From Actinomyces capricornis (GTDB lineage Bacteria > Actinomycetota > Actinomycetes > Actinomycetales > Actinomycetaceae): a stretch of 64,000 nucleotides of DNA. The stretch spans positions 434,001-498,000 of the forward strand of contig NZ_AP025017.1 in NCBI RefSeq assembly GCF_019974135.1, read 5' to 3'. This document shows, in pieces, positions 24,603 through 48,217 of the stretch (its first letter is position 1; each line of letters starts with the position of its first letter). The notes below the pieces were generated by a model that ran no database searches, was not told the DNA's origin, and worked only from the letters and a program-made list of their open reading frames with translations. A program made the translations under genes and the position numbers.

Positions 24603-24696
24603 TTGCACATCCTCAGCCCGCCGCCACCGCGCCCAGCCGCGCCATCACGCCAATCGCCCCACCCACCCCCGGCCCCACCGGCCCGACGATGTGCAG
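24603..24696. repeat. 94-bp terminal-inverted-repeat element, family C copy 1
   Basis: Starts TTGCACATCCTCAG and ends GACGATGTGCAG; 94 bp. It lies between the divergent GH13 and GH31 genes. The interior is C-rich and unlike the other copies, and no inner stem was found in this one. Confidence 0.7.
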
Positions 24697-24743
24697 CGGC
24701 GGGTCGGATGCGATGAGGGCGGTGCGGTGCCACCCTTGCCCCC

Positions 24744-27407
24744 ATGACCTCTCCACTGTCCCAGGCCCCCGCAGAGCCGCGCCCGGCCCCCGCCCGCCCC
24801 GACGCCGTCGTGGCCGGCCCCACCTTCCGCTTCACCGTGCTCACCAGCCGCCTCATCCGCATGGAGCACTCCCCCACCGGGGTGTTCTGCGACGAGGCCA
24901 CCCAGCTGGTCCTCGACCGCGACCTGGGCGATCCCGGCCCGTTCCAGGTGGTGCGGGGCGAGGACCACCTGGAGATCATCACCGAGCACCTGCACCTGAC
25001 CCACGTGCCCTCCCTGGGCTTCAGCCGCTCCGGGCTCAATGTGCGCCTGCGCACCACCACCCTCTCCCCGCATGGCGGCGCCTGGTACCACGGCGATGCC
25101 TGGGACCCCCAGGAGGCCTTCCCCACCAACCTGGGCGGGACCACCCGCACCCTCGATGAGGTCGACGGGCGCACCGCCCTGGAGCCGGGGCTGCTGGCGC
25201 TGACCGGCATCGCCGTCCTGGACGACTCCGCCTCCCTGCTGCTGACGCAGGATGAGTGGGTGGCCCCGCGCCCCGCCGGCGGCCGCCTGCAGGACGGGGC
25301 CCAGGACCTCTACCTCTTCGGCTACGCCCAGGACTACCGCGGAGCCCTGACCGACTTCTTCCGCCTGAGCGGCCCCACCCCGCTCATCCCCCGGGCCCTG
25401 CTGGGCAACTGGTGGAGCCGCTACCACGCCTACAGCGACCAGGAGTACCTGGCGCTCATGGACCGCTTCGCCGCGGAGCGCCTGCCCTTGTCCGTGGCGG
25501 TCATCGACATGGACTGGCACCTGGTGGACATCGACCCGGCCATCGGCACGGGCTGGACGGGCTACACCTGGAACCGCGAGCTCTTCCCCGACCCGCCCGC
25601 CTTCCTGGAGGCCCTCCACCGGCGCGGCATGCTGGTCTCCCTCAACGTCCACCCGGCCCAGGGCATCCGCCGCCACGAGGAGGCCTACGAGGCGGTGTGC
25701 TCCGACCTGGGGCTGGAGGCCTCCCACGGGGCGGATGTACCCTTCAGCGTCGGGGACCGCGATTTCGTGGGCTCCTACCTCTCGCGCATCCACCACGTCC
25801 TGGAGGACCAGGGCGTGGACTTCTGGTGGCTGGACTGGCAGCAGGGCGGCACGACGACGATCCCCGGCCTGGACCCGCTGTGGATGCTCAACCACATCCA
25901 CTACCTGGACTCCGGCCGCGAGCGCCCCGCCGGGCCGGACGGTGGGCTGCGCCGTCGTCCGGTGACCTTCTCCCGCTTCGCCGATGCCTCCAGCCACCGC
26001 ACGCCGGTGGGCTTCTCGGGGGACACGATCACCACCTGGGACTCGCTGCGCTTCCAGCCGGAGTTCACGGCCACGGCGGCCAATATCGGCTACTACTGGT
26101 GGTCCAATGACATTGGCGGGCACATGTTCGGCGTCCGCGACGACGCCATGGCGGCCCGGTGGGTGCAGCTGGGTTGCTTCTCTCCCATCAACCGCCTGCA
26201 CTCGACCCGCTCGGTGTTCAACTCCAAGGAGCCCTGGCGCTACTCGCGCGACGCACGGGCCACGATGGAGGCCCACCTGCGGCTGCGCCACCGGCTGGTG
26301 CCCTACCTGTACACCTGGGCGCGGCGGGCGGCGGCCGAGGGGGTGGGCCCGGTGCGCCCGCTCTACCACGACCACCCCCACCAGGAGGGCGCCTACGCCC
26401 ACCGCCGGACCTTCCTGTTCGGCGACCTGCTGGTGGTGCCCATGACCGCCCCGCTCGACGGGGTCACGGGCCTGGGGCGCGAGACCGCCTGGCTGCCCGA
26501 GGGCCGGTGGTACGACCTGCCCACGGGCCGGCGCTATGAGGCGGGACCCGCAGGCCGCACCCTGGTCCTGTCCCGGCCCCTGGATCGCCTGCCGGTGCTG
26601 GCCCGGGCGGGCTCGATCATCCCCCTGGCGGCAGGCCTGGATGAGGCCGCCGGGGACAATCCGCGCGAGCTGGAGATCGTGGTGGTGCCCGGCGGCGACG
26701 GCGTCTTCGTGCTGGAGGAGGACGACGGCTCACCGGCCCCCGGGCCCCGGCAGACGGCCCGCACGGTCCTGGCGCTGTCCTGGTCCGGGGCTCAGGGCAG
26801 CGGGTCCGGCCCCGCCGGCGAGGCCGGCGCCCAGGGCCGGATCGACGACGGCGCCCCGGCCGGTCCGGCTGAGCCCACCGGGCCCCGGCGCCAGGGTGCT
26901 GTCCTGCCCGATGGCGCCTCCGGGCAGGACATCGCGCGGGGCGAGGGCGCCCGCAGTGCGGACCGGGCCCGGCTGAGTATCCGCCTGGAGGGTGGGAGCC
27001 CCGTGGTCCCCGAGACCCGGCACCTGCGTGTGAGACTGCTGGCCGCTGAGTGCTCGGGCGCATCGCTGGAGGTGGGGGCCTCGGAGCAGCGCCGCGGGCT
27101 GAGCCCCCGGAGTGTGGCGGCCGATGGCTTCACCCTGGGGGCGGGCGTGCTCCTCGACCTGGGCGAGCTGAGCCACCAGGAGCTGGAGCACGGCGTCGAG
27201 CTGGTCCTGGAGGGCGCCGTGGAGGCTCCCGCCCCCTGGCGCGAGGAGCTGTACGGCCTCCTGGAGCCCGCCCGCCTGGACTACCTGGCCAAGGACCGGG
27301 CCTGGGAGGCGGTGGAGCGGGGGCTGGAGGGCACCGCCCTGCTGGCCGAGCTGGAGGCCCTGGGCCTGCCTGAGGCGCTGCGCAGCGCCGTCGCCGAGCT
27401 GTTCTGA
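24744..27407 (+). CDS. GH31 family alpha-glucosidase-like hydrolase
   Basis: 887 residues. An N-terminal beta-sandwich (about 20-200) is followed by the barrel with GNWWSRYHAYSD, DMDWHLVDI, the nucleophile region WWLDWQQGG (Asp about 364), and the acid/base region FSGDT (about 427). C-terminal beta domains carry an Ala/Gly/Pro-rich insert (about 665-745). GH31 enzymes include alpha-glucosidases and alpha-xylosidases; the exact specificity is uncertain. No signal peptide is visible. It is longer than typical alpha-glucosidases owing to the insert. The ATG at 24744 has no strong ribosome site. Confidence 0.87.
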   Translation: MTSPLSQAPAEPRPAPARPDAVVAGPTFRFTVLTSRLIRMEHSPTGVFCDEATQLVLDRDLGDPGPFQVVRGEDHLEIITEHLHLTHVPSLGFSRSGLNVRLRTTTLSPHGGAWYHGDAWDPQEAFPTNLGGTTRTLDEVDGRTALEPGLLALTGIAVLDDSASLLLTQDEWVAPRPAGGRLQDGAQDLYLFGYAQDYRGALTDFFRLSGPTPLIPRALLGNWWSRYHAYSDQEYLALMDRFAAERLPLSVAVIDMDWHLVDIDPAIGTGWTGYTWNRELFPDPPAFLEALHRRGMLVSLNVHPAQGIRRHEEAYEAVCSDLGLEASHGADVPFSVGDRDFVGSYLSRIHHVLEDQGVDFWWLDWQQGGTTTIPGLDPLWMLNHIHYLDSGRERPAGPDGGLRRRPVTFSRFADASSHRTPVGFSGDTITTWDSLRFQPEFTATAANIGYYWWSNDIGGHMFGVRDDAMAARWVQLGCFSPINRLHSTRSVFNSKEPWRYSRDARATMEAHLRLRHRLVPYLYTWARRAAAEGVGPVRPLYHDHPHQEGAYAHRRTFLFGDLLVVPMTAPLDGVTGLGRETAWLPEGRWYDLPTGRRYEAGPAGRTLVLSRPLDRLPVLARAGSIIPLAAGLDEAAGDNPRELEIVVVPGGDGVFVLEEDDGSPAPGPRQTARTVLALSWSGAQGSGSGPAGEAGAQGRIDDGAPAGPAEPTGPRRQGAVLPDGASGQDIARGEGARSADRARLSIRLEGGSPVVPETRHLRVRLLAAECSGASLEVGASEQRRGLSPRSVAADGFTLGAGVLLDLGELSHQELEHGVELVLEGAVEAPAPWREELYGLLEPARLDYLAKDRAWEAVERGLEGTALLAELEALGLPEALRSAVAELF

Positions 27408-27556
27408 CGGGCCGTCGGCCGATCAGCTCCTCGCTGGGACTGGCGCGCCCCACCCGGCAGGCGGGGCGCGACCAGGGGCGGCCTGGTCGCGCCCAGGCGC
27501 CCACCAGCGCGGAACAAGGCGCCCTCGCCGTGCTATTCACCCTGTGATCAGGCACA

Positions 27557-29578
27557 ATGCAGCCCATGGCATACCCCGAACGGGAACGGACCCGTACTCC
27601 CCAGGTGTGCGTGGCCACCGCCCGCCCCCTTCAGTCCACCCAGACCACCGCCGGCCTGCCCCTGATGTCCATCGCCGTCATGGCAGCCCTGGTCCTCACC
27701 CTCCTCATCAGCCCCCCGGCGGCTCAGGCCGCCCAGAGCCGCCCCGTCCTGCTGCCGGTCCCGCAGTCCGTGACCTGGCAGGGCCCGGCGGTCCCGCTCA
27801 ACGGATCGGTCGAGGTGACCAAGCTCGGCGAGGTCGACGACGACGTCGTTGCCGCCGTCACCGAGCAGATCACCGATGCCGGCGGCACGGTGGTGGCCTC
27901 CGGGGCCAAGCCCGCAGCCCGCGTCGTGCTGGGCACGGCGGCGGCGAATGTCAGCTCCTGGCTGCCCCCCAAGCAGAGCGTGCCCACCCAGGCCGAGGGC
28001 TACCTGCTGGGCACCCTCAGCAAGGACGTGCCCACAGTGGTGGCCCTGGGGCGCGACGCCGATGGCCTGTTCCACGCCATCACCGTCCTGGACCAGCTCA
28101 TCGAGGACGGCAGCGTCACCGGCGCCCAGGTGCGCGACTGGCCCACGATGGCCGTGCGCGGCGTCGTCGAGGGCTTCTACGGCGTGCCCTGGAGCCACCA
28201 GGCACGCCTGGACACCCTGTCCTACATGGGCGAGCAGCGCATGAACACCTACATCTACGCTCCCAAGGACGACCCCTACCTGCGCAAGAACTGGCGCACT
28301 CTCTACCCCGCCGCGGAGCTGGGCAGGATGGCCGAGCTGGCCCAGGCCGCCCAGGCCGCCCACGTGGAGCTCGTGGTCACCCTCTCGCCCGGGGACTCCA
28401 TCTGCTACACCTCCCAGGAGGACTACGACGCCGCGATCGCGGTTCTCGACCAGCTGCGCGGTATCGGCATCACCAGCTTCTACGTGGCCCTGGACGATCT
28501 GCTGGGCCCTGACGGCCTGCCCGCCCCTCTGTGCGAGTCCGACACCTCCCAGTTCGGCAACGGGGACCGCCTGGTGTCCCTGGCCAAGGCCCAGGCCCAC
28601 TTCCTCAACCGGATCCAGAACGAGTACATCCGGCCCAACGGCCTGCCCGACCTGTGGACGGTGCCCACCCACTACGTCGGAGTGGAGGCCACCCCCTACA
28701 TGACGGCCCTCGGCTCGGCCCTGGACAACAGGGTGCGGGTCCAGTGGACCGGGCGCGCCATCGTCACCGACTCCATCACCACCACCCAGGCGGCACAGGC
28801 CAAGAAGAACTACGACACCTCCAGCCTGGTGATCTGGGACAACTTCCCGGCCAACGACGGGGAGAACCAGGCCCGCCTCTTTCTGGGGGCGATGCCCGCG
28901 CGCAGTGCCGACCTGAGCAGCACCATCAGCGGCATCACCACCAACCCCATGATCCAGCCCTACGCCTCGCGCCTGGCCCTGGCCGACTACGCCGGCTACG
29001 CCTGGAACCCCGCCAAGCACGATGCCCGGGTGGCGCGCGATACGGCACTGGCGCACATCGTGGGCGCCGACTCCGGGCCGACGTGGCAGACGGCCCAGGC
29101 CTTCGTGGACATCCACCGCCAGTGGGAGTTCTCCGGGTGGCAGCAGACAGATACCTGGCGTGACACCTACCACGTCATCTGGGCCACGGAGGGCTCGGAT
29201 GATGCGGATCTCAACGCCAAGGCGGAGGTGCTCCGCTCGCGCCTGCGACTGCTCGCCGACGCGCCCACCACACTGGCCTCGGTGGAGGAGGAGGGCTTCT
29301 ACACCGATACCAAGCCGTGGATCGAGGTGACCTCGCAGTGGGCCAAGGCCGACCTCGCGGCGATCGACCTCATCCTGGCACTGCGCCGCGGGGATACCGC
29401 TGGAGCCCAGAAGGCGCACGACACGATGGAGGCGATGGTCGCCGCGACCGCCGCGGGGAAGGTGGATTCCCTCGATGAGCAGGGCAATGTGGTGGCCAAT
29501 GCCGTGGCGCCCACGATCGGCGAGAAGGCCATGAGCGAGCTGGTGGACGAGGCGCGCGAGGCCTGGAAGAACCGCTAG
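27557..29578 (+). CDS. Secreted GH84 beta-N-acetylglucosaminidase (hyaluronidase-like)
   Basis: 673 residues. After an extended N-terminus, residues about 37-60 form a signal peptide with a cleavage-like AAQA-AQ site. A GH20b-like N-terminal domain (about 65-190) leads into the GH84 barrel: RGVVEGFYGVPWSH (about 200), MNTYIYAPKDDP and the catalytic Asp pair in FYVALDDL (about 313), then WDNFPAND. The family removes terminal GlcNAc from glycans or glycoproteins and includes clostridial hyaluronidases (NagH/NagJ). It probably releases host mucin GlcNAc. ATGs at 27557, 27566 and 27665 all precede the hydrophobic core; the true start is uncertain. Confidence 0.9.
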   Translation: MQPMAYPERERTRTPQVCVATARPLQSTQTTAGLPLMSIAVMAALVLTLLISPPAAQAAQSRPVLLPVPQSVTWQGPAVPLNGSVEVTKLGEVDDDVVAAVTEQITDAGGTVVASGAKPAARVVLGTAAANVSSWLPPKQSVPTQAEGYLLGTLSKDVPTVVALGRDADGLFHAITVLDQLIEDGSVTGAQVRDWPTMAVRGVVEGFYGVPWSHQARLDTLSYMGEQRMNTYIYAPKDDPYLRKNWRTLYPAAELGRMAELAQAAQAAHVELVVTLSPGDSICYTSQEDYDAAIAVLDQLRGIGITSFYVALDDLLGPDGLPAPLCESDTSQFGNGDRLVSLAKAQAHFLNRIQNEYIRPNGLPDLWTVPTHYVGVEATPYMTALGSALDNRVRVQWTGRAIVTDSITTTQAAQAKKNYDTSSLVIWDNFPANDGENQARLFLGAMPARSADLSSTISGITTNPMIQPYASRLALADYAGYAWNPAKHDARVARDTALAHIVGADSGPTWQTAQAFVDIHRQWEFSGWQQTDTWRDTYHVIWATEGSDDADLNAKAEVLRSRLRLLADAPTTLASVEEEGFYTDTKPWIEVTSQWAKADLAAIDLILALRRGDTAGAQKAHDTMEAMVAATAAGKVDSLDEQGNVVANAVAPTIGEKAMSELVDEAREAWKNR

Positions 29579-29630
29579 CGGGTCGCGCGAGCGGGGAGCG
29601 CAGGCCTCCACGCGGGCGCAGGCTGCGACG

Positions 29631-29691
29631 TGCGAGTGCGGGGTGCACGAAGCGAGTACCCCGCACTCGCTTCGTGTACCCCGCACTCGCA
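29631..29691. repeat. 61-bp hairpin after the GH84 gene
   Basis: Arms 29631-29656 and 29666-29691 pair over 26 bp with one G-T wobble (TGCGAGTGCGGGGT-type sequence); the loop is 9 nt. It lies between the GH84 stop and the acetyltransferase start. It may terminate GH84 transcription, although no T-run follows. The phrase ACCCCGCACTCGC occurs twice. Confidence 0.65.
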
Positions 29692-29736
29692 TGGTGGATC
29701 TCCACCGCTGCGGCGTCGGCGCTGTACGGTCGGGCC

Positions 29737-30417
29737 ATGAGCGATCCCAGCAGCGAGCCCACAGCCCAACCCCGGAGCCGGTCCGAGGCGTCAGAACCCC
29801 GCTTCCCCGAGGCCGAGCCCTACTTCCACGGCGATGAGCGCACCAACCGCGAGCGCATGCTGGCGGGCGACTGGTACGTCGCCGACGATCCGGATAATGC
29901 GCGCATCGCCGCGCACGCCCGCAAGGCGCTCTACGAGTTCGAGCGCGCCTTCGCCCTGGGGCAGGAGGACTGCTGGGACCTGCTGCGCTCGGCCATTCCG
30001 GGCCTGGGCCAGGGCGCCCGGCTGCTGCCGCCGGTGCGCGTGGACTACGGGGACAACATCACCGTGGGAGAGGGCACCTTCGCCAACTACGGGCTGGTGG
30101 CCCTTGATGTCGCTGAGATCCGCATCGGGTCCTTCTGCCAGATCGGGCCGAATGTCCAGCTGCTCACGCCGGTCCACCCCCTGGAGCCCGCGCCGCGCAG
30201 GGCGGGCCTGGAGGCGGCCGACCCCATCGCGCTGGGCGACAACGTGTGGCTGGGCGGCGGGGTCATCGTGTGCCCGGGGGTGAGCATCGGTGAGGGCTCC
30301 GTGGTGGGCGCGGGCTCGGTGGTCACCAGGGACATCCCGCCCTACAGCCTGGCGGTGGGCAACCCTGCCCGTGTCATCCGCTCCCTGGAGGACTCCACCT
30401 TCGCCCCGCGCCACTGA
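29737..30417 (+). CDS. Maltose/sugar O-acetyltransferase (left-handed beta-helix)
   Basis: 226 residues. An N-terminal maltose-acetyltransferase domain (NRERMLAGDWYVADDP, about 36-85) precedes hexapeptide repeats (VDYGDNITVGEGTFANYG, IGSFCQIGPN, VWLGGGVIVCPGVSIGEG). The catalytic His is in LLTPVHPLEP. Such enzymes acetylate maltose, galactosides or other sugars with acetyl-CoA; NodL, LacA and Maa are relatives. The ATG at 29737 has TACGGT exactly 6 nt upstream and no Shine-Dalgarno sequence, suggesting a leaderless mRNA. It sits downstream of glycosidase genes. Confidence 0.87.
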   Translation: MSDPSSEPTAQPRSRSEASEPRFPEAEPYFHGDERTNRERMLAGDWYVADDPDNARIAAHARKALYEFERAFALGQEDCWDLLRSAIPGLGQGARLLPPVRVDYGDNITVGEGTFANYGLVALDVAEIRIGSFCQIGPNVQLLTPVHPLEPAPRRAGLEAADPIALGDNVWLGGGVIVCPGVSIGEGSVVGAGSVVTRDIPPYSLAVGNPARVIRSLEDSTFAPRH

Positions 30418-30521
30418 GCCGCCGGCGCCGTCCTCCCCGGCGCCACGGGCCCTTCCATGGCGCACAGCGGGATCCTCCCGGCAGTCCGCGGCCAGGAGTT
30501 CGCAGCAAGGAGCCGGGCCCC

Positions 30522-30615
30522 TTGCACATCTTCACAGCCGCTTGGCTGCTCCAGTGCGTGGGAATCCGCGTGGTGCCGCCAATCGGCTGGTGGGGCTCGC
30601 GCTGAAGATGTGCAG
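30522..30615. repeat. 94-bp element, family C copy 2
   Basis: TTGCACATCTTCA ... CTGAAGATGTGCAG, 94 bp. Next to the left end an inner arm CAGCCGCTTGG (element positions 14-24) pairs with CCAATCGGCTG (58-68), one mismatch. It is followed 11 bp later by copy 3. Confidence 0.8.
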
Positions 30616-30626
30616 CGCCGGGCCCG

Positions 30627-30720
30627 CTGCACATCTTCAGCCCCTGCCGGTCGGGCAGCGCCGGGCCGTTCCGCAGCATTCCGGGGCTCTCATGCCCGCA
30701 GCCGCTCTGAAGATGTGCAG
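30627..30720. repeat. 94-bp element, family C copy 3, supplies a CPBP 3' end
   Basis: CTGCACATCTTCAG ... CTGAAGATGTGCAG, 94 bp, with an inner AGCCCC/GGGGCT pair (positions 13-18 and 57-62). The last 31 bp (30690-30720) are also the 3' end of the CPBP gene on the minus strand, including its stop codon. Confidence 0.8.
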
Positions 30721-31775
30721 CGCCCTTGGGGGACGGGCACCTCTGCGGCCTGGCACTTGCGGCGCCACAGGGGTGCGACGATGAGGCCGCGGCGCCGCAC
30801 CTCCAGCATCATCGCCACCCCGACGGCGGTGCACAGCAGTACTGCGATCAGGGAGCCCTCCAGTCCCATCGGCCCTCCGGTGAGCAGGTCGGGGCCGGGG
30901 AAGCCGGCCTCGATGAGCCCGCGGCCGCTGCCGGTCCCGGAGATGTCGGAGCCGAAGATGCCGCCCTGGATGAAGTTCCAAGCCAGGTGCACCCCGATGG
31001 CCAGCCACAGGCGGCGGGTGAGCAGGTAGCAGGCCCCCAGCAGGATGCCCGCCTCCAGGGCGATGGCCACGGCGCCCAGGACTGTGGCCTCGGCGTTGCC
31101 CAGGTGGCCGGCGCCGAAGAGGACGGCGGTGATTCCCAGCGCCCACCAGGTGCCCAGCCAGTCCTCCAGCAGGCGCAGCAGGAGGCCGCGGGAGAGGACC
31201 TCCTCGGCGACACCGGCTGAGATGCCTGAGGCCAGCCCCAGGACAATGCCCTCACTCCAGCCCACGCTCTGGACCCGGTAGGAGCCCGCCAGGGCGAGGA
31301 CGGCCACGACGGCGCTGATGAGCGCGGTCCCGATGGCCAATCCCACGCCCAGCTCCCCCAGCGCGCCGCCCTGACCGATCTCAACGACGTCCCGGCGCCC
31401 TGTGAAACGGATGAGGTACCAGTAGGCCCCCAGTGCCACCACAGCGGTGACGAGGGCGCCACTGAGCGAGCCCAGGCCACGGCTCCCGGGGCCTCCGACG
31501 GCGGTGACCAGCCCCTGAGCCAGTCCGCCGAGGACTTGAGCGATGACAACCAGGGCGATGCCGAGGATGAGTTGGAGCCAGCCCAGCCGCTCGGCGCGGT
31601 GGCCCGGACGCCGCCATGCCGGGGCCGTGGGCAGGAGCCGGCGCAGGCGGCCGGCGCCCGGGTGGCCGGCGCCCGGGTGGCCGGTTCGGACCCCGCCGAT
31701 GGCATCCGCCACGCCGCTGGCGCAACTGGTGGTGGTACCGGCCTCCGAAATCCCGCGGACGTGGTGCGTGCTCAT
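30690..31775 (-). CDS. CPBP family intramembrane metalloprotease-like protein
   Basis: 361 residues. A polar N-terminal part (about 1-65) precedes about eight membrane segments. CPBP motifs are EEVLSRGLLLRLLE, FGAGHLGN and HLAWNFIQG (the glutamates, first and second histidines, and Asn), so this copy has a full ligand set. Possible roles are proteolytic processing or bacteriocin immunity. The start is the ATG at 31775, with GATACT 6 nt upstream. The last residues (CTSSERLRA) and the stop are encoded by a 94-bp intergenic element, so the tail is not native. Functionally it is unlinked to its neighbours. Confidence 0.82.
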   Translation of the reverse strand: MSTHHVRGISEAGTTTSCASGVADAIGGVRTGHPGAGHPGAGRLRRLLPTAPAWRRPGHRAERLGWLQLILGIALVVIAQVLGGLAQGLVTAVGGPGSRGLGSLSGALVTAVVALGAYWYLIRFTGRRDVVEIGQGGALGELGVGLAIGTALISAVVAVLALAGSYRVQSVGWSEGIVLGLASGISAGVAEEVLSRGLLLRLLEDWLGTWWALGITAVLFGAGHLGNAEATVLGAVAIALEAGILLGACYLLTRRLWLAIGVHLAWNFIQGGIFGSDISGTGSGRGLIEAGFPGPDLLTGGPMGLEGSLIAVLLCTAVGVAMMLEVRRRGLIVAPLWRRKCQAAEVPVPQGRCTSSERLRA

Positions 31776-32232
31776 CTCTCCAGTATCCCGCCGCGCCCCA
31801 TCCCCGCACTCCTCCCCAGGTCCGATCCTGGGGCCACCGCCAGGCACACGAAGAACGTCCGTTCGCGAATGGGGCGTCACTTCGCGACGGAGGCGACACC
31901 TGGAAGGTACGTCCATGTCGCGAAGCGACGTCCCTGCCGCCAACCGACGCTCATCTTGCACTCCCTGCCGGCTCCGGCCCCCTCCCAGTCCCGGGCGAGC
32001 CCCGCAGCGCACCGGAAGTGGCGAGCCTCACTCCTGTAGTGACGTGGAGGTAACCGGAGCGCCGGTGCCAGGCTCCTGGCGCATGCCCAGATGGCATGCC
32101 GCGCACCGGGGCACCGCCCACACCGGCAACCACCGGCTGCTTACCGGCAGTCGGCCGATCAGGGGCCGCATCAGCCCGCCGTGGGAGACCCGGAGCGATT
32201 CGCAGCACGCAGGACCACAGCAAGGAGCCCTC
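31776..32232. other. Divergent intergenic region with repeat family A copy 2
   Basis: 457 bp between the divergent CPBP and NTF2-like genes. It holds the family A hairpin (31875-31930). The remainder contains GC-rich inverted fragments around 32070-32150 but no supported gene. The NTF2-like gene has AAGGAG close to its ATG. Confidence 0.55.
31861..31930. repeat. Palindromic repeat family A copy 2 (56-bp core)
   Basis: The core 31875-31930 has arms CGTCACTTCGCGAC and GTCGCGAAGCGACG (one A-C mismatch) and an inner stem ACCT/AGGT. Its length equals that of copy 1 at 3988-4043, although the arm sequences differ. The central CACCT..AAGGTA.GTCCAT and the upstream TTCGCGAA-like flank are shared. 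Confidence 0.75.
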
Positions 32233-32634
32233 ATGTCCACCAGCACACCGCTCGACGTCGTCAACGACTACTTCCAGGCCCTGGCCCAGGGCCGGGTCGC
32301 TGAGGCGATGGCCCTGCTGGCCCCCGACGTCGTCTGGCACCAGCCCGGCGCCAACCGGTTCTCGGGGGACCACACCGGCCCTGAGCAGGTCGGCGCCCTC
32401 ATCGGGGCGATGATGGAGGCCAGCGGGGGCACCCTCGCGGTGGTCCCCCAAGGCCCGGCCATGGGCAACGGCGAGCTGGTGGCCGTCCCGGTGCGCTTCT
32501 CGGGCAGGCGCGAAGGCGCCGACCTGGACCAGGCCGGGGTCGACCTGCTGACGGTCAGGGACGGCCGCATCGTCGAGGTGCACCTGTTCTCCCAGGACGG
32601 CCCCGCCGAGGACGAGTTCTGGGGGCGGGCCTGA
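32233..32634 (+). CDS. SnoaL/NTF2-like ketosteroid-isomerase fold protein
   Basis: 133 residues. The start (PLDVVNDYFQALAQGRVAEAMALLAPDVVWHQPG) and the later VPVRFSGRREG and LTVRDGRIVEVHLFSQD match the nuclear transport factor 2 / SnoaL fold. Members bind small hydrophobic ligands and are isomerases, hydrolases or stress proteins. No specific substrate can be assigned. The ATG at 32233 has AAGGAG 6 nt before it. An HxlR regulator gene converges with it, but control is not evident. Confidence 0.78.
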   Translation: MSTSTPLDVVNDYFQALAQGRVAEAMALLAPDVVWHQPGANRFSGDHTGPEQVGALIGAMMEASGGTLAVVPQGPAMGNGELVAVPVRFSGRREGADLDQAGVDLLTVRDGRIVEVHLFSQDGPAEDEFWGRA

Positions 32635-32812
32635 CCGGCCCCGCCGTAGGCGGCCAGTCCCGGCCCGGCCCACGAGGCACCGTGCGGCGGACGCCAGCCA
32701 GCGCCGCACATGGCCGCACATCCCGGACAAGCAGCAGGAACCTCACCGCAGGGCACTGCCCAGCGCGCGAGCCCGGCCCACCACGGCAGCCGGTCCGGCA
32801 CCGTGGCGGCCG

Positions 32813-33196
32813 TCAGTCCTGGCCCGCCCGCTCGCCGTGCCGGGCGTCGTAGGCGGCCCGGGCCTCCAGCACCTCGCCAGCGTGAGCCTCAGCCCAGGCC
32901 CGGAGCGCCGCCATGGGCTCCAGGACGCTGCGGCCCAGGGGGGTCAAGGAGTACTCGACCCTCGCAGGCACCCCGGGGAAGGCCTCGCGGGCCACCAGCC
33001 CATCGCGCTCCAGGGTCCTCAGGGTCGCGGTGAGCACCTTGTTGGAGATGCCCTCCACGACCGCCTGGACCTGGGTGAAGCGCAGCGGCCCCTCCCTGAG
33101 GGCGAGGATCACCAGGGCGGGCCACTTGCTGGCGATCCGGGCCAGGGAGGAGCGCGAGGGGCACCCCTCCCCCATGACGTCGTAGTCCTTCGCCAT
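32813..33196 (-). CDS. HxlR family transcriptional regulator
   Basis: 127 residues: CPSRSSLARIASKWPALVILALREG, then LRFTQVQAVVEGISNKVLTATLRTLERDGLVAR and the wing VPARVEYSLTPLGRSVLEPM, the standard HxlR winged helix. A Cys lies at the usual N-terminal position, used for redox or aldehyde sensing in some members. The ATG at 33196 has GGGGA upstream. An ATG at 33235 overlaps the pcrA stop (ATGA) and would add 13 residues, so translational coupling to pcrA is possible. The target is unknown. Confidence 0.82.
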   Translation of the reverse strand: MAKDYDVMGEGCPSRSSLARIASKWPALVILALREGPLRFTQVQAVVEGISNKVLTATLRTLERDGLVAREAFPGVPARVEYSLTPLGRSVLEPMAALRAWAEAHAGEVLEARAAYDARHGERAGQD

Positions 33197-33231
33197 CGTG
33201 TCCCCGCCTCGCCTGCCCGTACCCGCAGTGG

Positions 33232-37891: not shown

Positions 37892-37900
37892 CGGGGCCCG

Positions 37901-39192: not shown

Positions 39193-39211
39193 CTTACTTC
39201 TCCTACTTTGC

Positions 39212-39217: not shown

Positions 39218-39223
39218 TGGGTC

Positions 39224-39466
39224 ATGAATTCACCAGCACCACCCCCAGGAAAGTTCGCCGCCACCGTCGCCCTCGGAGAGAAGGGCCAGATCGTCATCCC
39301 CAAAGGGGTCCGGGACCTGTTCGGGATCCAGCCGGGAGACACCGTCCTCATCCTGGCCGACGTCGAGCAGGGCATCGCCATCGTCCCGCCCGATCTCGCC
39401 GACCTCTACATCACGCAGATCATGAGCGGCGGCGCCCAACCACCGCAGGCCAAGGAGGAGCCGTGA
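39224..39466 (+). CDS. SpoVT/AbrB-fold DNA-binding protein
   Basis: 80 residues. FAATVALGEKGQIVIPKGVRDLFG and the following IQPGDTVLILAD form the swapped-hairpin AbrB domain (about 9-55). AbrB-like proteins are transition-state regulators or antitoxins. Here it is the first gene of an operon whose second gene (ABC ATPase) starts inside its stop codon (GTGA at 39463-39466), so it likely regulates the transporter. It may bind the ACTAGT palindrome upstream. Confidence 0.84.
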   Translation: MNSPAPPPGKFAATVALGEKGQIVIPKGVRDLFGIQPGDTVLILADVEQGIAIVPPDLADLYITQIMSGGAQPPQAKEEP

Positions 39467-40374
39467 CCGCCGTGTCATGCCGAGGCGTCACCCGCCGCTT
39501 CGGTGGCCTCGCCGCCGTGGACGGCGTGAGCCTGGAGGTGGAGGACAACGAGATCTTCGGCCTCATCGGCCCCAATGGCGCGGGCAAGACCACGCTCCTG
39601 AACTGCATCGAGGGCCTGGATGAACCTACCTCCGGAGCCATCGAGGTCCTTGGCCTCCACCCGACCAGGCAGGCACGCGCCCTGGCCCAGCGCACCGGCG
39701 TCCAGCTCCAGCAGGCCTCGCTCCTGCCCCGTCTGAAGGTGGGCGAGGCCCTGGAGCTCTTCTCCACCTTCTACGAGCGCTGCCTGCCCTGGCGCCCGCT
39801 CCTGGAGCGGCTCGGCATCGCCGCCCAGGAGTCCTCCTACGTCACGAGCCTGTCCGGGGGCGAGCGCCAGCGGGTGTTCATCGCCCTGGCCCTTCTCCAC
39901 GACCCCGACCTGCTCTTCCTCGACGAGCTGACCACGGCGCTGGACCCGCAGGCGCGCCTGGCGATGTGGGACGTCGTCCGCGATATCCGCGAGCGCGGCA
40001 AGACCGTGGTGCTGACCACCCACAACATGGAGGAGGCCGAGGCCCTGTGCGACCGGGTCGCCATCATCGACCACGGCCGGATCATCGCGCTGGACACCAT
40101 CGCGGCCCTCATCGCGGCTCACGGCGGGCAGGGCCGCCTGCGGCTCTCGCTGGACGGGCCGGCACCCGCCTCCCTGTCCGCCGTCGAGGGCGTCTCCTCG
40201 GTGGAGGCCGACGGCGCGGCGACGGTGGTGCGCGGCTCCGGAGCCTTCGCCCAGGCCGCACTGGCCCACCTGACCGGGGCCGGCGTCGGCGTCACCAGCA
40301 TGTCCACCACTTCGCCCGGCCTGGAGGAGGTCTTCCTCAACCTCACCGGGCGCGCCATGAGAGAGGCACACTGA
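39463..40374 (+). CDS. ABC-2 type transporter ATP-binding protein
   Basis: 303 residues. Walker A GPNGAGKT (about 36-43), signature LSGGERQR (about 129), Walker B LLFLDE and His switch in LTTHNMEEAE. After about residue 220 the accessory domain of CcmA/DrrA-type ATPases follows (FLNLTGRAM near the end). The GTG start overlaps the abrB-like stop and follows AAGGAGGAG. With the next gene it forms an exporter, possibly for a drug, lantibiotic or lipid. The substrate is unknown. Confidence 0.9.
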   Translation: MTAVSCRGVTRRFGGLAAVDGVSLEVEDNEIFGLIGPNGAGKTTLLNCIEGLDEPTSGAIEVLGLHPTRQARALAQRTGVQLQQASLLPRLKVGEALELFSTFYERCLPWRPLLERLGIAAQESSYVTSLSGGERQRVFIALALLHDPDLLFLDELTTALDPQARLAMWDVVRDIRERGKTVVLTTHNMEEAEALCDRVAIIDHGRIIALDTIAALIAAHGGQGRLRLSLDGPAPASLSAVEGVSSVEADGAATVVRGSGAFAQAALAHLTGAGVGVTSMSTTSPGLEEVFLNLTGRAMREAH

Positions 40375-41120
40375 TGCGCACCTATCGGGTTCTGGTCGTC
40401 ATGCTCGCCCGCTCCGCGCTGCGCGAGCCGGTGGGCCTGTTCTTCAGCCTCATCTTCGCCCCGATGCTGGTCATCATCCTCGGATTGTTCTTCGGCAATG
40501 ACCCCACGCCCCAATTCGGGGGGCAGGGATTCGTCGACGCCGTGCTGCCCGCCTGCTCCTGTCTGGTGGTGGCGATGACCGGCGTCCTGCTCCTGCCGGT
40601 CACCCAGCTCCAGCTCCGCGAGAGCGGGGCCCTGGCCCGGCTACGGGCCACGCCGCTGCGGCAGGGGATCTATGTGGCCGCGGATCTGAGCGTCAACTTC
40701 CTCATCAGCATGGCCGGCGTCATCCTGGCGCTGGCGGCCGGCATGCTCGGCTTCGGCGCTACCCTGCGGGGGAATCCGCTTCTGGTTGTGGCCGCGGTGG
40801 CACTCGGACTAGTGGCCTTCCTGGCCCTGGGCTACACGCTGGCAGCCGTCCTCCCCTCCTCGCGGGCCGCCACGGGCATCGGCAATGGGCTGTTCATCGT
40901 GCTCATGCTCTCCTCCGGGGCGTTCATCCCCACGGCCGAGCTGCCCGCAAGCGTCCAGCGCATCATGGGCTACTCGCCGTTCTACTACCTGGTCGACCTG
41001 GTGCGGGGCCTGTGGGGTGGCGAGCCGTGGTCCCACTACGGCCCGGCGACGGCAGTACTGGCCGGCATGGCCATGATCCTCGGGGCACTGGGGGCGCGCC
41101 TGTTCACGTGGAGCACCTGA
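40374..41120 (+). CDS. ABC-2 type transporter permease
   Basis: 248 residues with six membrane segments: an N-terminal REPVGLFFSLIFAPMLVIILG segment, and the typical LARLRATPLRQGIYV amphipathic region after the second, then FIPTAELPASVQRIMGYSPFYYLVDL near the end. These are hallmarks of DrrB/ABC2-type permeases. The stop of the ATPase gene overlaps its start (TGATG at 40372-40376). The two are expected to form a drug- or peptide-type exporter. Confidence 0.88.
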   Translation: MRTYRVLVVMLARSALREPVGLFFSLIFAPMLVIILGLFFGNDPTPQFGGQGFVDAVLPACSCLVVAMTGVLLLPVTQLQLRESGALARLRATPLRQGIYVAADLSVNFLISMAGVILALAAGMLGFGATLRGNPLLVVAAVALGLVAFLALGYTLAAVLPSSRAATGIGNGLFIVLMLSSGAFIPTAELPASVQRIMGYSPFYYLVDLVRGLWGGEPWSHYGPATAVLAGMAMILGALGARLFTWST

Positions 41121-41316
41121 GCCGGCCGGGCTGGAGCCCGGGCCGATAGAGCCGATGGGACCGCGAGGGCATGGGGCGGAGCAGGGGCGGGATCGGGCCA
41201 CCCGCCCCCCTCAGCCCTGCAACTCGGCCCCGCGCGGACAGGAGTCCGCCCGAACCGGCCCGCGCTCCCCGTGCAGTGGTTAGGGTACCCGTGCAGCAAT
41301 CAGGAGGAGAGGACTG

Positions 41317-42486
41317 ATGATGACGCACTACGGCATACGGAGAATCGCCGCCCTGACGGCGGCGGGGATGGCATCGGCCTGCCTGGCCGGCTGCTGGCCG
41401 GCCCCCGGGGACGCGGGAGCCGGCGGACCGGGGTCCACGAGCACAGTGGGCCCGGCGGCCGAGCAGCCCGGGGCCCCCGGGGAGTCTCAGGGGCCGGCGG
41501 CCGATGAGGGCGGGGGCGCGGCGCCCTCACCCTCCCTGGACGCCCCCGCGCAGCCGAGCCCCGCCGCAAGTGCCGCAGCGCCGTCGGGCCCCGCCTCGCC
41601 CCTGGCTCCGTCAGCGGCGCCGCCCGAGGCAGGGGGGCCGTCGTCGACGACGCCCCAGCCGCCAGCAGCAGGGCCGGGCACCGCGGGGCCCACCGCGCCG
41701 GAGACCGGCAGCGGGCAGGCGCCCGAGAGCCCGGGAACGGGAGGACCGGGCAGCACCGGCTCACCCGGCTCCGAGCCCGGCCACGACCAGTCCCAGGCGC
41801 AGATCGAGGGCTGGAGCATCGACTTCTTCGACGGCTTCGACACGCCCCTGGAGCAGACGAAGTGGGAGCGCTACGGCTGGGGCGACCCGCCGGTGGGCCA
41901 CGGCGCCATGGGCGTGATGTCCCAGCGCAACTCCTTCACCCGCGACGGCAGCCTCGTCATCCGCACCCAGTACGAGAACGGGCAGTGGAGCGCCGGGGGC
42001 GCCGGCTCGAAGTTCGTCCACACCGCCTCCTACGGCAGGTGGGAGGTGCGCGCGAGGTTCCCGCAGGCCAAGGGCATCGGCTACGCCTTCCTCCTGTGGC
42101 CCGCCGATGAGGGCTGGCCCCCGGAGATCGACTTCGCCGAGGGGCGAGTCAACGGCCCCCAGGTCATGGGCGTCTACCACTGGGATCCGGACAACAAGCA
42201 GGAGCACCGCTTCATGGACCACCACGACATGAGCGGCTGGCACACCTACGGCGTGATCGTGGAGCCCGACCTCATCACCTTCACCCTCGACGGCCGGCCC
42301 TGGGGCACCATCGAGCACCCGAGCGTGACGGACAAGCAGATGTTCATCGGCTTCCAGACCGGCGCCATGGACCCCAACGGCTGGCAGAGCAGCACCGAGA
42401 CCGTCGACGGCGGTGTGCCCGGGCCGCTGACGCCTGCGGTCAGCGACATCGAGATCGACTACGTCGCCCACTACACCAGGAACTGA
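41317..42486 (+). CDS. Lipoprotein GH16 family glycoside hydrolase
   Basis: 389 residues. Signal peptide with lipobox LAGC (Cys about 26), a Pro/Ala/Gly/Ser-rich linker (about 30-165), then a GH16 jelly roll: FFDGFDTPLEQTKWERYGWG, YGRWEVRARFPQ, and the catalytic motif EIDFAE (about 270; ExDxxE), followed by WHTYGVIVEPD. GH16 enzymes cut beta-1,3/1,4-glucans, agar or related polymers. It is likely surface-attached and acts on dietary, fungal or biofilm glucan. The ATG at 41317 (or 41320) follows AGGAGGAG. Confidence 0.88.
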   Translation: MMTHYGIRRIAALTAAGMASACLAGCWPAPGDAGAGGPGSTSTVGPAAEQPGAPGESQGPAADEGGGAAPSPSLDAPAQPSPAASAAAPSGPASPLAPSAAPPEAGGPSSTTPQPPAAGPGTAGPTAPETGSGQAPESPGTGGPGSTGSPGSEPGHDQSQAQIEGWSIDFFDGFDTPLEQTKWERYGWGDPPVGHGAMGVMSQRNSFTRDGSLVIRTQYENGQWSAGGAGSKFVHTASYGRWEVRARFPQAKGIGYAFLLWPADEGWPPEIDFAEGRVNGPQVMGVYHWDPDNKQEHRFMDHHDMSGWHTYGVIVEPDLITFTLDGRPWGTIEHPSVTDKQMFIGFQTGAMDPNGWQSSTETVDGGVPGPLTPAVSDIEIDYVAHYTRN

Positions 42487-42980
42487 GCCCCACCGGGCCG
42501 GCCTCCCGGGCGGGCCCGAGAGCCAGGGCCCAGGAGCGCCTGGAACTCATGCAGACGCCGTGCGGCCGTCCCCTCGCGGGCGGCCGCACGGCTGCGCTCC
42601 GGGGGCCGGGGGCGTCGTCGTCGAGGACCGGCACCCAGCCGCACTGCCCGAGCTGCACAGCCCGCGCTTCGGGGACGGGGCTCGGGGCGCCCGAGGGGAC
42701 TCCGCGGGAGGGCGGGCGGCCGGCGGACACCGTCGGGCAGCAGGGCCGGAGCCTTGAGCGTGCTTCGCCCAGAGGCGAAGCCCTGGAGGGAACCGGCCCC
42801 GCCTTTACCATGGGAGGACCGTCACATTCTGACGAGGTCTGGACGCTGAGACCGCAGGGCCGCGGCTGCCGCACCACTCGCGCCATCCGCGCCGCCACCA
42901 GGGCCCTCATGCGCCGGACACGCCATCGGCATGCCGCCTCCAGCGCTGGCATGCGCACCCGACCGAGAGTAGGCACCACC
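42487..42980. other. Intergenic region upstream of the clpC-like gene
   Basis: 494 bp. A single CTTGAG half-site at 42757-42762 recalls the HspR HAIR element, but no second half (ACTCAAG) follows, so no heat-shock operator can be claimed. Open frames here are GC-driven. No other feature was seen. Confidence 0.45.
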
Positions 42981-45461
<2,481 letters not shown>

Positions 45462-45618
45462 TCACACTCGGCTGCGCCCGTGCCTCCCACACAGCCGGGC
45501 GAGGCCGGGGCTCACGCGCTTGAGTGCCTGACGCGGTATCTGGAAGGAGCTCTTCCCAGCATGTGCACTCCGGCTCATGCAGTGCCCGCTATCGCCACCT
45601 GACGACGACAGGCGCACC

Positions 45619-45978
45619 CTACGGCGTAGAATCCTGCCCATGCTCCTCAAGCAGTGACGCCAATAGCGCAGCAAGCGCCGGCACCCTCATTGTCACTGAT
45701 TGCCAGACAAGAAGGTAATCAATGCTCCCATACTCATGAACGATGATATTCCTCATCCCAATGATACGATCCGCATCCTCGATCGCCGAGGACACATCAG
45801 GGTCGGCGCGACGGATGCGATTAAGTGCCTCGCCAAGGACCTCGATCTGCCGCTCCACGGCCGACCTGCGCATGAGATCGCCAACGAATTCCTGATATTC
45901 AACGCCCTCGATGAACTGCCCCGCAGCCCGAGCCGCTTGCAGCGCATCCCACAAGTACGCTGACGTTTCACGCCGCAT
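45619..45978 (-). CDS. HepT-like HEPN ribonuclease toxin (DUF86)
   Basis: 119 residues, all helical. RNIIVHEYG (R76, H81, Y83) is the RX4HXY active site of HEPN RNases. HepT toxins cleave RNA and are silenced by MntA, which adds AMP to the Tyr of this motif. The ATG at 45978 has AAGGAG 4 nt upstream; an in-frame start at 45996 is less well supported. The gene overlaps the 3' end of the MntA-like gene. Confidence 0.86.
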   Translation of the reverse strand: MRRETSAYLWDALQAARAAGQFIEGVEYQEFVGDLMRRSAVERQIEVLGEALNRIRRADPDVSSAIEDADRIIGMRNIIVHEYGSIDYLLVWQSVTMRVPALAALLASLLEEHGQDSTP

Positions 45979-46279
45979 AGAGCTCCTTCGCTCCATCCAG
46001 GACCGAGGCCCGGAAATAAGGATTCCTCATCGAGTCGGCGATAACTAAATCGACTGACATCCCCGTCAATCGCGCCAGCTCATCTCGAAGACCAAGATAG
46101 TCGGCAAGCCGATCCGAGCGCCCCGGGAGAAAATCCACAAGGAAATCAAGGTCACTACGATCCGGGTCGAAACGATCCGTTGCCGCAGAGCCGAACAAGC
46201 GCAGCCGAGCAACACCATGCTCTTGACATGCGCGAGCCAGGAGTTGCGCGCTCGGCAGGAAACGCTCGAATCCGCTCAT
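45968..46279 (-). CDS. MntA-like minimal nucleotidyltransferase antitoxin
   Basis: 103 residues with the nucleotidyltransferase motif: GS at 30-31 and D43-L44-D45, spacing GS-X11-DxD. The following VDFLPGRSDRLADYLGLRDEL matches MNT proteins. These partners inactivate HepT by tri-AMPylation (shown for the Shewanella pair; inferred here). The stop overlaps the HepT start region by 11 nt. The full DxD suggests an active enzyme. Confidence 0.84.
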   Translation of the reverse strand: MSGFERFLPSAQLLARACQEHGVARLRLFGSAATDRFDPDRSDLDFLVDFLPGRSDRLADYLGLRDELARLTGMSVDLVIADSMRNPYFRASVLDGAKELYAA

Positions 46280-46341
46280 GAGCGAAGTATCTCAAGGAGA
46301 GCCGCGTTGCGCCAAGCCCAGCCGAAGCCACCCGCAGAGGT

Positions 46342-47148
46342 TCAGGGAAGGGCCTGGCGCAGGAAGGAGTTGCAGGCCTCGTAGAAGCCCCGGGGCTGGT
46401 CGCGGCGCACGCAGTGGGAGGCGCCGGGCACCAGGGCGGTGGTCAGGCACGGGTTGTCCAGCGCCCGCACCTGCGCCAGGCCCTTCTGACCGAGCAGGAC
46501 GCCCCCGCCGTCGGAGGTGATGACCAGGGTGGGCACGCTCAGGGACGCGGCGACCTGCCGCCACGGGGTGGGCGGGGTGACAATGCCGGTGCGCAGCAGG
46601 CCCCGGTCGACCTGGGTCTTGGCCTGGAGCCAGGCGCAGGCCTCCTGCACCTCCCAGGCGGGGTAGTCCCGCCGGTTCTGAGCCAGGGCGCGGGCGGGGT
46701 CAGCGGCGATCCGGTCCATGTGGTCGGCTGAGGCGCAGGCGCCCTGCCGGTAGGACTCCTCCTGCTCGGCGCTGAGCCAGGCCGGGTCCTCCACGATGAG
46801 GGCCTCCACGAGGTCGGGGCGGGCGGCGGCCGCGGCGGCGCACACGGCCCCGCCCATGGAGTGGCCCACGAGGACGCGGGGCACGCCGGGCTCATGGGCC
46901 TGGCGGTCCTCCAGGAGGGAGATGACGTCGTCGACCATGACGGAGATGGGGTCGGCGAGCTGGTCGGGGGTCAGGCGCGGGGAGGTGCCGTGACCGCGGG
47001 CATCCAGGCCGGTGACGTCGTAGGCATCCTGCCAGTGCTGGAGAGCCCCGGCCAGGGAGGCGGCGTTGTCGGTCACGCCGTGGCACAGGAGCAGCTGGGG
47101 CGCCCCCGGGCGGCGGCTGCGGATCCAGGTGATCGGCTGGGTGCTCAT
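46342..47148 (-). CDS. Alpha/beta-fold hydrolase
   Basis: 268 residues. LLLCHGVTDNAAS (oxyanion region), GLDARGHGTS, nucleophile elbow GHSMGG and a C-terminal His in GASHCVRRD; the acid is probably in the VITSDGGG region. The best-known relatives hydrolyse esters or act as haloperoxidase-like enzymes; substrate unknown. The ATG at 47148 has GGAGGAG 5 nt upstream; the upstream frame is Arg/Pro-rich and unlikely. Confidence 0.84.
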   Translation of the reverse strand: MSTQPITWIRSRRPGAPQLLLCHGVTDNAASLAGALQHWQDAYDVTGLDARGHGTSPRLTPDQLADPISVMVDDVISLLEDRQAHEPGVPRVLVGHSMGGAVCAAAAAARPDLVEALIVEDPAWLSAEQEESYRQGACASADHMDRIAADPARALAQNRRDYPAWEVQEACAWLQAKTQVDRGLLRTGIVTPPTPWRQVAASLSVPTLVITSDGGGVLLGQKGLAQVRALDNPCLTTALVPGASHCVRRDQPRGFYEACNSFLRQALP

Positions 47149-47270
47149 GGTCTCCTCCGGTCTGGCCCGCGGGCGCCTGGGTGGTGGTGGGGTGGTGGCG
47201 CGGCGGTGGGGCAACTGTACGGGTGGCAGCGGGCGGTGGCGGGCGACGGGCTGCGGGCTCGGGCGCCTTT

Positions 47271-47340
47271 CGCTGGCTCATCCGCTCTTCGCCCGCTGAT
47301 TCCGCGCCGTCTGGGCCCTCAGGATGCGAGCGACCCAGCG
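47271..47340. repeat. Palindromic repeat family D copy 3
   Basis: CGCTGGCTCA ... CGACCCAGCG, exactly 70 bp as in copies 1 and 2. The outer inverted repeat extends: GGGC..CTTTCGCTGG on the left and its complement on the right. It lies between the hydrolase start and the 3' end of the AlkD-like gene. Confidence 0.68.
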
Positions 47341-47352
47341 AAAGTGCCCGCC

Positions 47353-48069
47353 TCACAGGTGCTTGAGGGCCTCACGGCGGCTCAGAGGGGACAGGCGCGG
47401 GTGGGCCTCGACGAAGGCGCGCACCCACCGGCCGTCGGTGCGGGCGTAGTCGCGCAGCGCCCAGCCGATCGCCTTGCGGATGAAGAACTCGCCGTCGTCC
47501 TGATTGGCCTCGACGACGTCGCGCAGGAGGTCGAGGTCGGTGCGCTCCTTGTGCTGGAGCTGGCAGATGATGGCACTGCGGCGCACCCACAAGTCCGCGT
47601 CGCGCGCCCAGGCGCGCATCCGGGCGGCCGCGGCGGGATGCGCCAGGACCACAAGGCCCACGGCATGCGAGGCCTCATCCACCAGATCCCACCACTGGCC
47701 GGTTCGCAGCAGGTGCTCGTACAGGGCCAGGGAGTCGATGCGGTCGGCATGCGGCGCGGAGTGCTTGGAGCGGATGATGGCAAGTACAGCGAAGCGCTCC
47801 TCCCTGCGCTCCGCCCCGTCCCACACCTGATGCAGGACGGCTCGCCAGTCGGCGGCCTCCCGCCACAGGCCGGGGTGGGAGGCGGCGGCCGCCTGGGCGA
47901 TGCGGCGGGCGGCCGGGACGCCGACGCCGTACATCTCCATGTCGGACTTGAGGTAGGCGCGCTGCTGGGCGGCGCACGCCGGATCGCCGGCCGCGGCCAG
48001 GGCTTCGCGCAGGTCACAAATGAGGGCCTCCGCCTCCTCGGCGAGCTGGGTGCCTGCCAGTGGACTCAT
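47353..48069 (-). CDS. AlkD-like DNA alkylation repair protein
   Basis: 238 residues, all helical HEAT-like repeats: YLKSDMEMYGVGVPAARRIA, WWDLVDEASHAVG, WARDADLWVRRSAIICQLQHK and FFIRKAIGWALRDYARTD. These are the conserved parts of AlkD glycosylases that excise N3- and N7-alkyl purines. The aromatic and acidic pocket residues (WxxDLVDE, GWALRDY) are kept. The ATG at 48069 has TATCGT exactly 6 nt upstream and no Shine-Dalgarno sequence. Confidence 0.87.
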   Translation of the reverse strand: MSPLAGTQLAEEAEALICDLREALAAAGDPACAAQQRAYLKSDMEMYGVGVPAARRIAQAAAASHPGLWREAADWRAVLHQVWDGAERREERFAVLAIIRSKHSAPHADRIDSLALYEHLLRTGQWWDLVDEASHAVGLVVLAHPAAAARMRAWARDADLWVRRSAIICQLQHKERTDLDLLRDVVEANQDDGEFFIRKAIGWALRDYARTDGRWVRAFVEAHPRLSPLSRREALKHL

Positions 48070-48123
48070 GCCGCCACGATAGCCAGAGTCGCGCCACCGG
48101 CGCAGTGGCGGCCGCAGCCCCGG

Positions 48124-48217
48124 CTGCACATCGTCAAGAATCGACCGAATGGTTGATCCGCACGATCCCGCGGTTCATTCGGTCCGAGCCTCGGCGGTGG
48201 GCGCCGAAGATGTGCAA
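48124..48217. repeat. 94-bp element, family C copy 4
   Basis: CTGCACATCGTCA ... CCGAAGATGTGCAA, 94 bp, between divergent genes. Inner arms GACCGAAT (positions 20-27) and ATTCGGTC (54-61) are perfect. Confidence 0.75.

What the first reader, a model, noticed from the sequence alone, without database searches (positions are those of the whole stretch)
24603..48217. Four 94-bp elements with conserved ends and unlike interiors
Units at 24603-24696, 30522-30615, 30627-30720 and 48124-48217 are each exactly 94 bp. All begin YTGCACATCnTCA and end with its near-complement GAnGATGTGCAR. The roughly 68 bp between the ends cannot be aligned by eye, yet three of four carry an inner inverted pair next to the left end (for example GACCGAAT/ATTCGGTC in copy 4). 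Fixed length with free sequence suggests selection on spacing and structure: a structured RNA, a cruciform, or a non-autonomous element with strict size. The copies lie in divergent and convergent gaps and one reaches into a gene.
Basis: seen in the sequence. Interest (0 to 1): 0.78.

Follow-up and report, generated by a model that had tools for sequence, protein, structure and literature searches.

The report
Helix-phased, length-locked repeats in Actinomyces
The four copies belong to a genus-wide family of short DNA elements between genes whose ends, centre and exact length are preserved while the rest drifts, as if proteins fold each one into a small loop; what the loop is for is unknown.

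Summary
Confirmed, and larger than described. The window lies in a 3.17-Mb Actinomyces chromosome with 50 exact copies. Lengths fall in classes of about 83, 94 and 105 bp, one helical turn apart (165 copies, three genomes); tandem neighbours are 11 bp apart in 48 of 51 cases. The "unlike" interior holds a core, about CCGCGGAATCATGCGG, at fixed turns from the ends. The core is near genus-specific (exact 15-mer: 35 of 49 genus genomes, 4 of 164 others in the family). In other species it sits at the exact centre of elements with entirely different inverted ends, locked near 120, 122 or 128 bp. Between two species the interior differs at 239 of 1052 sites, end position 10 and its mirror (free of the search patterns) at 2 of 46. 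Interiors and type-A ends do not covary, so RNA is unlikely here. No Y1/RAYT transposase was found in 49 genomes. Best reading: a mobile-derived DNA site kept by selection, its two ends bridged by protein on one face of the helix around a core-binding bend. Proteins and function are not identified.

The parts
24603..24696 (-). copy 1, 94 bp, divergent gap; weak core at about 24637-24652
30522..30615 (+). copy 2, 94 bp, first of a tandem pair in a convergent gap; weak core at about 30566-30581
30616..30626 (.). 11-bp linker of CG-N7-CG form between copies 2 and 3; the same length in 48 of 51 tandem neighbours in three genomes
30627..30720 (+). copy 3, 94 bp; core CCGCAGCATTCCGGGG at 30671-30686; overlaps the 3' end of a predicted gene (30690-31775, -) by 31 bp
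48124..48217 (+). copy 4, 94 bp, divergent gap; core CCGCACGATCCCGCGG at 48158-48173; A. bowdenii has a two-unit array at the orthologous place

Best explanation
The elements are double-stranded DNA sites for a looped nucleoprotein complex. Identical inverted end sites are recognised by a protein that bridges them (inferred). The DNA between is bent around a second, core-binding protein (inferred), and all three sites must lie on one face of the helix (shown as spacing: core to end about 3, 4 or 5 turns, end to end 8, 9 or 10 turns). The family spread through genomes as small dispersed repeats, like MITEs, and arrays change size by whole units (shown by comparison of two species). Resident copies are now kept by selection on ends, core and length, so the loop most likely does something useful where it sits, such as local chromosome organisation or insulation (function inferred, not shown).
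For: Length ladder 83/94/105: resultant 0.955 at period 10.5 for n=165, maximum 0.27 in 20,000 uniform draws; the fit is broad (0.95 or more from 10.5 to 11.4), so the exact period is not fixed. Core centre-to-end distances: of 88 copies with the core, 29 are 32.5/50.5 (83 bp), 33 are 43.5/50.5 and 20 are 40.5/53.5 (94 bp), 6 differ; the one 104-bp copy is 50.5/53.5 at 4 mismatches. Core exactly centred in type B (15 of 15 loci, 120 bp), C (14 of 14 fitting among 20 G004 loci, 122 bp) and D (10 of 11 fitting among 19 G012 loci, 128 bp). 23 orthologue-like pairs G000/A. bowdenii: interior differs at 239 of 1052; end position 10 and mirror, not part of any search pattern, at 2 of 46 (Fisher P=0.0009); end positions 11-12 and mirrors at 0 of 92, but these were in the pattern that fetched the A. 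bowdenii loci. Core positions 45-53 of the 94 class, chosen afterwards, 5 of 108; the preset stretch 40-56 gives 22 of 204 (94 class) and 30 of 187 (83 class). Four-fold sites differ at 1847 of 13431. Array differences of one whole unit. Copies at four loci (482125, 786143, 1858470, 2087951) share half an interior.
Against: No binding protein or mobilising enzyme was found. Copies had to keep 8 bp of each end to be found, and pairs were matched by interior identity above 0.66, so some are paralogues, which inflates interior divergence. The core of the 83 class is only mildly conserved (16% against 23% for the rest). Decayed copies exist in G000 (7 of 9 orphan half-sites read), so loss is tolerated. 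Types B, C and D show within-copy arm likeness that pure protein recognition does not predict.
Confidence: 0.57

Rival explanations
1. Purely selfish miniature transposable elements mobilised in trans by an unidentified transposase; ends, core and phase are needed only for transposition (transpososome geometry on very short DNA) and resident copies have no host role.
For: Dispersed paralogues; ends often opening TG..CA (types A, B, C, E, by eye); presence/absence and array differences between species. Helical size ladders are known for transposon-derived Paramecium IESs (PMC3464196, passages read).
Against: Ends change less than interiors at resident loci. No autonomous parent seen for type B: 69 pairs formed from the rows listed are 120 or 121 bp; of 12 listed half-sites without a listed partner, 8 have a weaker partner at 120-122 bp, 2 lie at contig ends (one not fetched), and 2 are one element split by an unrelated insertion. 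G030 rows were not listed. No transposase among the predicted genes of the 9 short loci read. Y1 transposase absent from 49 genomes. Flanks show inverted symmetry, not direct duplications (by eye).
Confidence: 0.25
2. A structured RNA or RNA hairpin with regulatory function.
For: Long complementary ends; types B, C and D arms are more alike within than between copies (B: 66 differences vs 112 in within-genome shuffles, 0 of 20,000 shuffles as low; D P=0.005, C P=0.014). Core co-oriented with codirectional neighbour genes in 20 of 28 copies (my count; core orientation is uncertain in weak copies).
Against: Type A: no covarying interior helix in 31 or 13 copies; arm differences not reduced within copies (84 vs 80.8 expected). 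In type B 30 of 66 within-copy arm differences are A/T, which do not pair. Copies lie in divergent, convergent and codirectional gaps (14, 8, 28). Fixed spacing with drifting sequence is not expected of RNA. Only the ZTP riboswitch reaches Rfam's threshold in the window.
Confidence: 0.08
3. Chromosome-organising or division-control sites, like Noc or SlmA sites: dispersed, origin-biased, avoided near the terminus. This is a special form of the best explanation, so the odds overlap.
For: Origin placed by parS clusters. Loci per quarter from origin to terminus: G000 16, 11, 10, 2 (39 loci, P=0.0007); G048 13, 11, 6, 3 (33 loci, P=0.0055).
Against: Gene dosage during insertion, or accessory DNA near the terminus, would give the same bias; not controlled. 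Several end types coexist in one genome, unlike one DNA-binding protein. Whether G000 and G048 copies are orthologous was not tested. The Noc/SlmA comparison is recalled; I saw only a search listing.
Confidence: 0.15

Closest known systems
BIME-1 / RIB (RIP) elements of E. coli
   Same: Two oppositely oriented end units around a stretch bound by IHF, extragenic, also in arrays (BIME-1 and IHF from passages of PMC2817692; RIB seen only as a title in its reference list; the rest recalled).
   Different: Ends are not REP hairpins with a GTAG tag; lengths are helical quanta; several unrelated end types share one core; the core's protein is unknown.
REPIN-RAYT
   Same: Miniature inverted doublets with invariant ends and a less conserved spacer at preferred spacings (71, 110 bp; passages of PMC3116915).
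   Different: No Y1 transposase in any of 49 genus genomes; type-A ends are not self-complementary hairpins.
Correia repeat enclosed elements (Neisseria)
   Same: Inverted ends, conserved core, discrete length classes, IHF site in the long form (abstract and passages of PMC2649163).
   Different: Correia elements duplicate their target (same source); here no such duplication was seen, interiors are unlike, and ends differ by species.
Paramecium IESs
   Same: Transposon-like ends, decaying interior, size distribution with the helical period explained by loop formation (PMC3464196, passages).
   Different: Eukaryotic DNA that is excised; no excision evidence here.

Membership tests
REPIN-RAYT | Y1 (RAYT) transposase in the genome | tested here: not met
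   PF01797 at E <= 0.001: 0 of 49 genus genomes; rings in 5 of 14 control genomes
REPIN-RAYT | each end a short palindrome with GTAG/GGAG-type tag | tested here: not met
   end CGYTGCACATCTTCR has no hairpin and no tag, by inspection
REPIN-RAYT | two inverted conserved ends at a preferred spacing | tested here: met
Correia-like MITE | direct target duplication | tested here: not met
   flanks of the 50 copies show CG..CG inverted symmetry and no shared direct repeat; by eye
Correia-like MITE | copies alike along their whole length | tested here: not met
   interior information is low outside the core
BIME-1 / RIB | central architectural-protein site between inverted end units | tested here: inconclusive
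   conserved core in fixed position; its protein is unknown
BIME-1 / RIB | IHF binding | not testable with these tools
   needs a binding assay
structured RNA | covarying helices | tested here: not met
   for type A; arm likeness in types B, C, D is compatible with pairing
IES-like excised DNA | helical size ladder | tested here: met
IES-like excised DNA | precise excision | not testable with these tools
   no reads; whole-unit array differences only

The most novel reading that the evidence does not exclude
A genus-wide bacterial system of DNA loop sites in which a common core-binding factor is conserved while the end-binding specificity has been swapped repeatedly between and within species, each swap rewriting dozens of sites; natural selection has run a helical-twist experiment on bacterial loops, and the origin-biased sites help to organise the Actinomyces chromosome. 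One type-B site was even hit by a Tn5053-like transposon 32 bp from its core, a class known to hunt recombinase-occupied res sites, so the sites may be occupied by a recombinase-like complex.
Probability: 0.25. Interest if true: 0.9.

Novelty: new variant of a known kind. Interest (0 to 1): 0.74.

Why it matters
It gives a natural, genome-scale record of selection on helical phase in short bacterial DNA loops, and a family in which ends and core evolve at very different rates. That makes two questions testable: what protein pair reads such modular sites, and whether dispersed bacterial repeats are kept for a host function rather than by transposition alone.

Tried and rejected
Non-Actinomyces matches to the end pair: most of those printed are Bacillota copies at 83-84 bp beside AAAAAAG slips that read like IS3-type orfB (by eye, label recalled); rejected as coding coincidence. 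Viral contigs: 16 exact core matches, none with inverted ends at equal distance except one 10-of-12 match in a 54% GC contig (L299); taken as chance. Search for an autonomous parent: a type-B inverted pair 5.4 kb apart in G019 looked like one, but it is a 120-121-bp element split by a 5,265-bp insertion with its own ends and a 9-bp direct repeat; subtracting insert and one repeat leaves 121 bp. The insert codes for an AAA protein, a Mu-type transposase and a serine resolvase (Pfam) and a gene that reads like mercuric reductase (my reading, not searched). Loci with few elements place them beside genes that look like ilvD, mraZ and ribosomal-protein genes (my reading of translations). Orphan half-sites in G000: 9 contexts read, 7 decayed copies, 1 coding, 1 possible 51-bp copy; forward sites 946333, 1430074, 1637216 and 2769367, and the reverse ones not, were not read. 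Empty sites for A. bowdenii pairs in the window region were not clean. I did not compare gene content and ran no structure prediction. Literature: searches listed no paper on such repeats in Actinomyces (none; one paper each, not opened; one search unrelated papers). PMC3733652, PMC2817692, PMC10969869 and PMC12306157 hold the word Actinomyces 0 times in the main text. Papers were seen as listings, abstracts in listings and passages only.

Full report
The four units exist as described, and the pairing at this spacing is far above chance (4 in the window, 0 in 100 shuffles). The window is part of a complete 3,170,963-bp chromosome with 50 exact pairs. The genus is Actinomyces: genome G003 of the same genus carries element sequences identical to those of A. 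bowdenii DSM 15435 (compare G003:60790 with L093).

Anatomy. In G000 lengths are 94 (31), 83 (13), 84 (2), 82, 88, 95 and 104 (1 each). In 67 copies from the 35 A. bowdenii loci held: 94 (42), 83 (20), 95 (4), 93 (1). In G048 (48 copies): 94-95 (22), 104-106 (25), 83 (1). The searches covered spans of 78-108 bp only. Together (n=165) the resultant at period 10.5 is 0.955; three classes about 10.5-11 bp apart fit a range of periods, so the period is not sharply fixed. Ends read CGYTGCACATCTTCR and its complement. Neighbouring units are 11 bp apart in 9 of 10 exact tandem pairs of G000 (read), 29 of 29 in A. bowdenii and 10 of 12 in G048.

The core. Aligned copies show a conserved centre. A 13-base core is found within 3 mismatches in 88 of 117 copies against 1 of 117 for the reversed string; at 4 mismatches 107 against 9. 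Of the 88, 82 lie at three fixed placements: 83-bp copies 32.5/50.5 (29), 94-bp copies 43.5/50.5 (33) or 40.5/53.5 (20), the last two being the two orientations of an asymmetric core. Allowing a small offset for that asymmetry, the distances are about 31, 42 or 52 bp, that is 3, 4 or 5 turns (my interpretation).

Other species. A sequence model of the 94-bp class matched 13 of 49 genus genomes and led to elements with other ends. The core with up to 2 mismatches occurs in 44 of 49 genus genomes, reversed control 0. An exact 15-mer occurs in 35 of 49 genus and 4 of 164 other family genomes (my count of the rows). Around it stand unlike inverted ends: TGTCCAAATCGGTGACAAAGG (type B), TGGCGCTCTGGGAGGATCGTTC (C), AAAGGTGGCTCCTACGCACTTTTA (D), GTGTCCGTCAGAATGACATT (E) and others, with up to three types in one genome. 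Type B is locked: of 69 pairs in five genomes formed from the rows listed, 60 are 120 bp and 9 are 121 bp (my reading; rows of G030 were not listed); 8 further pairs found at half-sites without a listed partner are 120-122 bp, one of them with a weak partner. The core is exactly centred in 15 of 15 B, 14 of 14 C and 10 of 11 D copies; these loci were chosen by carrying the core.

Selection. For 23 orthologue-like G000/A. bowdenii pairs interiors differ at 239 of 1052 sites. End position 10 and its mirror, the only end positions inside the repeat that no search pattern fixed, differ at 2 of 46 (P=0.0009). Positions 11-12 and mirrors differ at 0 of 92 but were in the pattern that fetched the A. 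bowdenii loci. The outermost Y/R positions vary. Some pairs are paralogues. Four-fold coding sites differ at 13.8% (1847 of 13431), so the interior drifts at or somewhat above that level while ends, and the 94-class core, are held. A separate, less biased look: of 62 forward end sites listed for G000, 48 have an intact partner, 8 a decayed one, 1 is coding, 1 odd and 4 were not read.

Dynamics. At one locus A. bowdenii has [94]-11-[83] where G000 has only the 83-bp unit; at another two near-identical units stand for one. Copies at four G000 loci share the left half of the interior, which shows earlier dispersal. In G019 a type-B element is split by a 5,265-bp Tn5053-like insertion 32 bp past the core, with a 9-bp direct repeat; subtracting insert and one repeat leaves 121 bp. 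Transposons of that class are called res site hunters (PMC7765201, start of abstract in a listing); one event proves nothing, but it is what an occupied recombinase-like site would attract.

RNA or DNA. No interior helix is supported by covariation in either length class. Type A arms do not covary within copies (84 differences, 80.8 expected). Types B, C and D arms are more alike within than between copies. This could be pairing, arm-to-arm copying or subfamily structure, and I cannot separate these.

Position. 47 of 50 G000 copies are wholly between predicted genes; 28 codirectional, 14 divergent, 8 convergent gaps (predicted coding share of the window 0.78). Loci thin out from the origin to the terminus in both G000 and G048 (origins from parS). 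Insertion dosage and accessory DNA were not controlled.

Mechanism. Fixed helical phase between two identical end sites and a central site, with drifting sequence between, is what short DNA loops demand; the same kind of size ladder was read as loop selection in Paramecium IESs (PMC3464196). I therefore infer an end-bridging protein and a core-binding bender. REPIN-RAYT is excluded by the absence of the Y1 family. Closest in layout are BIME-1/RIB and Correia elements, but with different ends, no target duplication seen, unlike interiors, and swapped ends around a common core.

Noticed in passing
window 6001-6087 (-): ZMP/ZTP riboswitch, 46.2 bits against a gathering score of 39.
   Followed up: no
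L309 (G019 C1:643700-649600), 320-5584: Tn5053-like insertion (AAA protein, Mu-type transposase, serine resolvase, a gene reading like mercuric reductase) inside a type-B element, 9-bp direct repeat.
   Followed up: partly
G000 C1:813367 and 813977 (L024): Two nearly identical 84-bp copies 610 bp apart, flanking a short predicted gene, without the usual core.
   Followed up: no
type F loci, for example L273-L283 (G016): Elements with TTGCACATTCG-like ends on the left and a CTCCCATGTGC..GCACATGGGAG hairpin on the right of the core, an asymmetric variant.
   Followed up: partly
L227 (G026): Core flanked by an extended hairpin (GGGCCCCTCATCCGC..GCGGATGAGGGGCCC) inside ends CCTAGTCAGAAC.
   Followed up: no
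L257, L259 (G004): Type C copies whose outer flanks (ATTCT/ATTT) are swapped relative to the core compared with other copies, as if the interior had inverted (by eye).
   Followed up: no
L208 (G005) and L217 (G015): Core hits (both of 2 in G005, 2 of 3 in G015) lie upstream of a gene that looks like ilvD, read from its translation.
   Followed up: no
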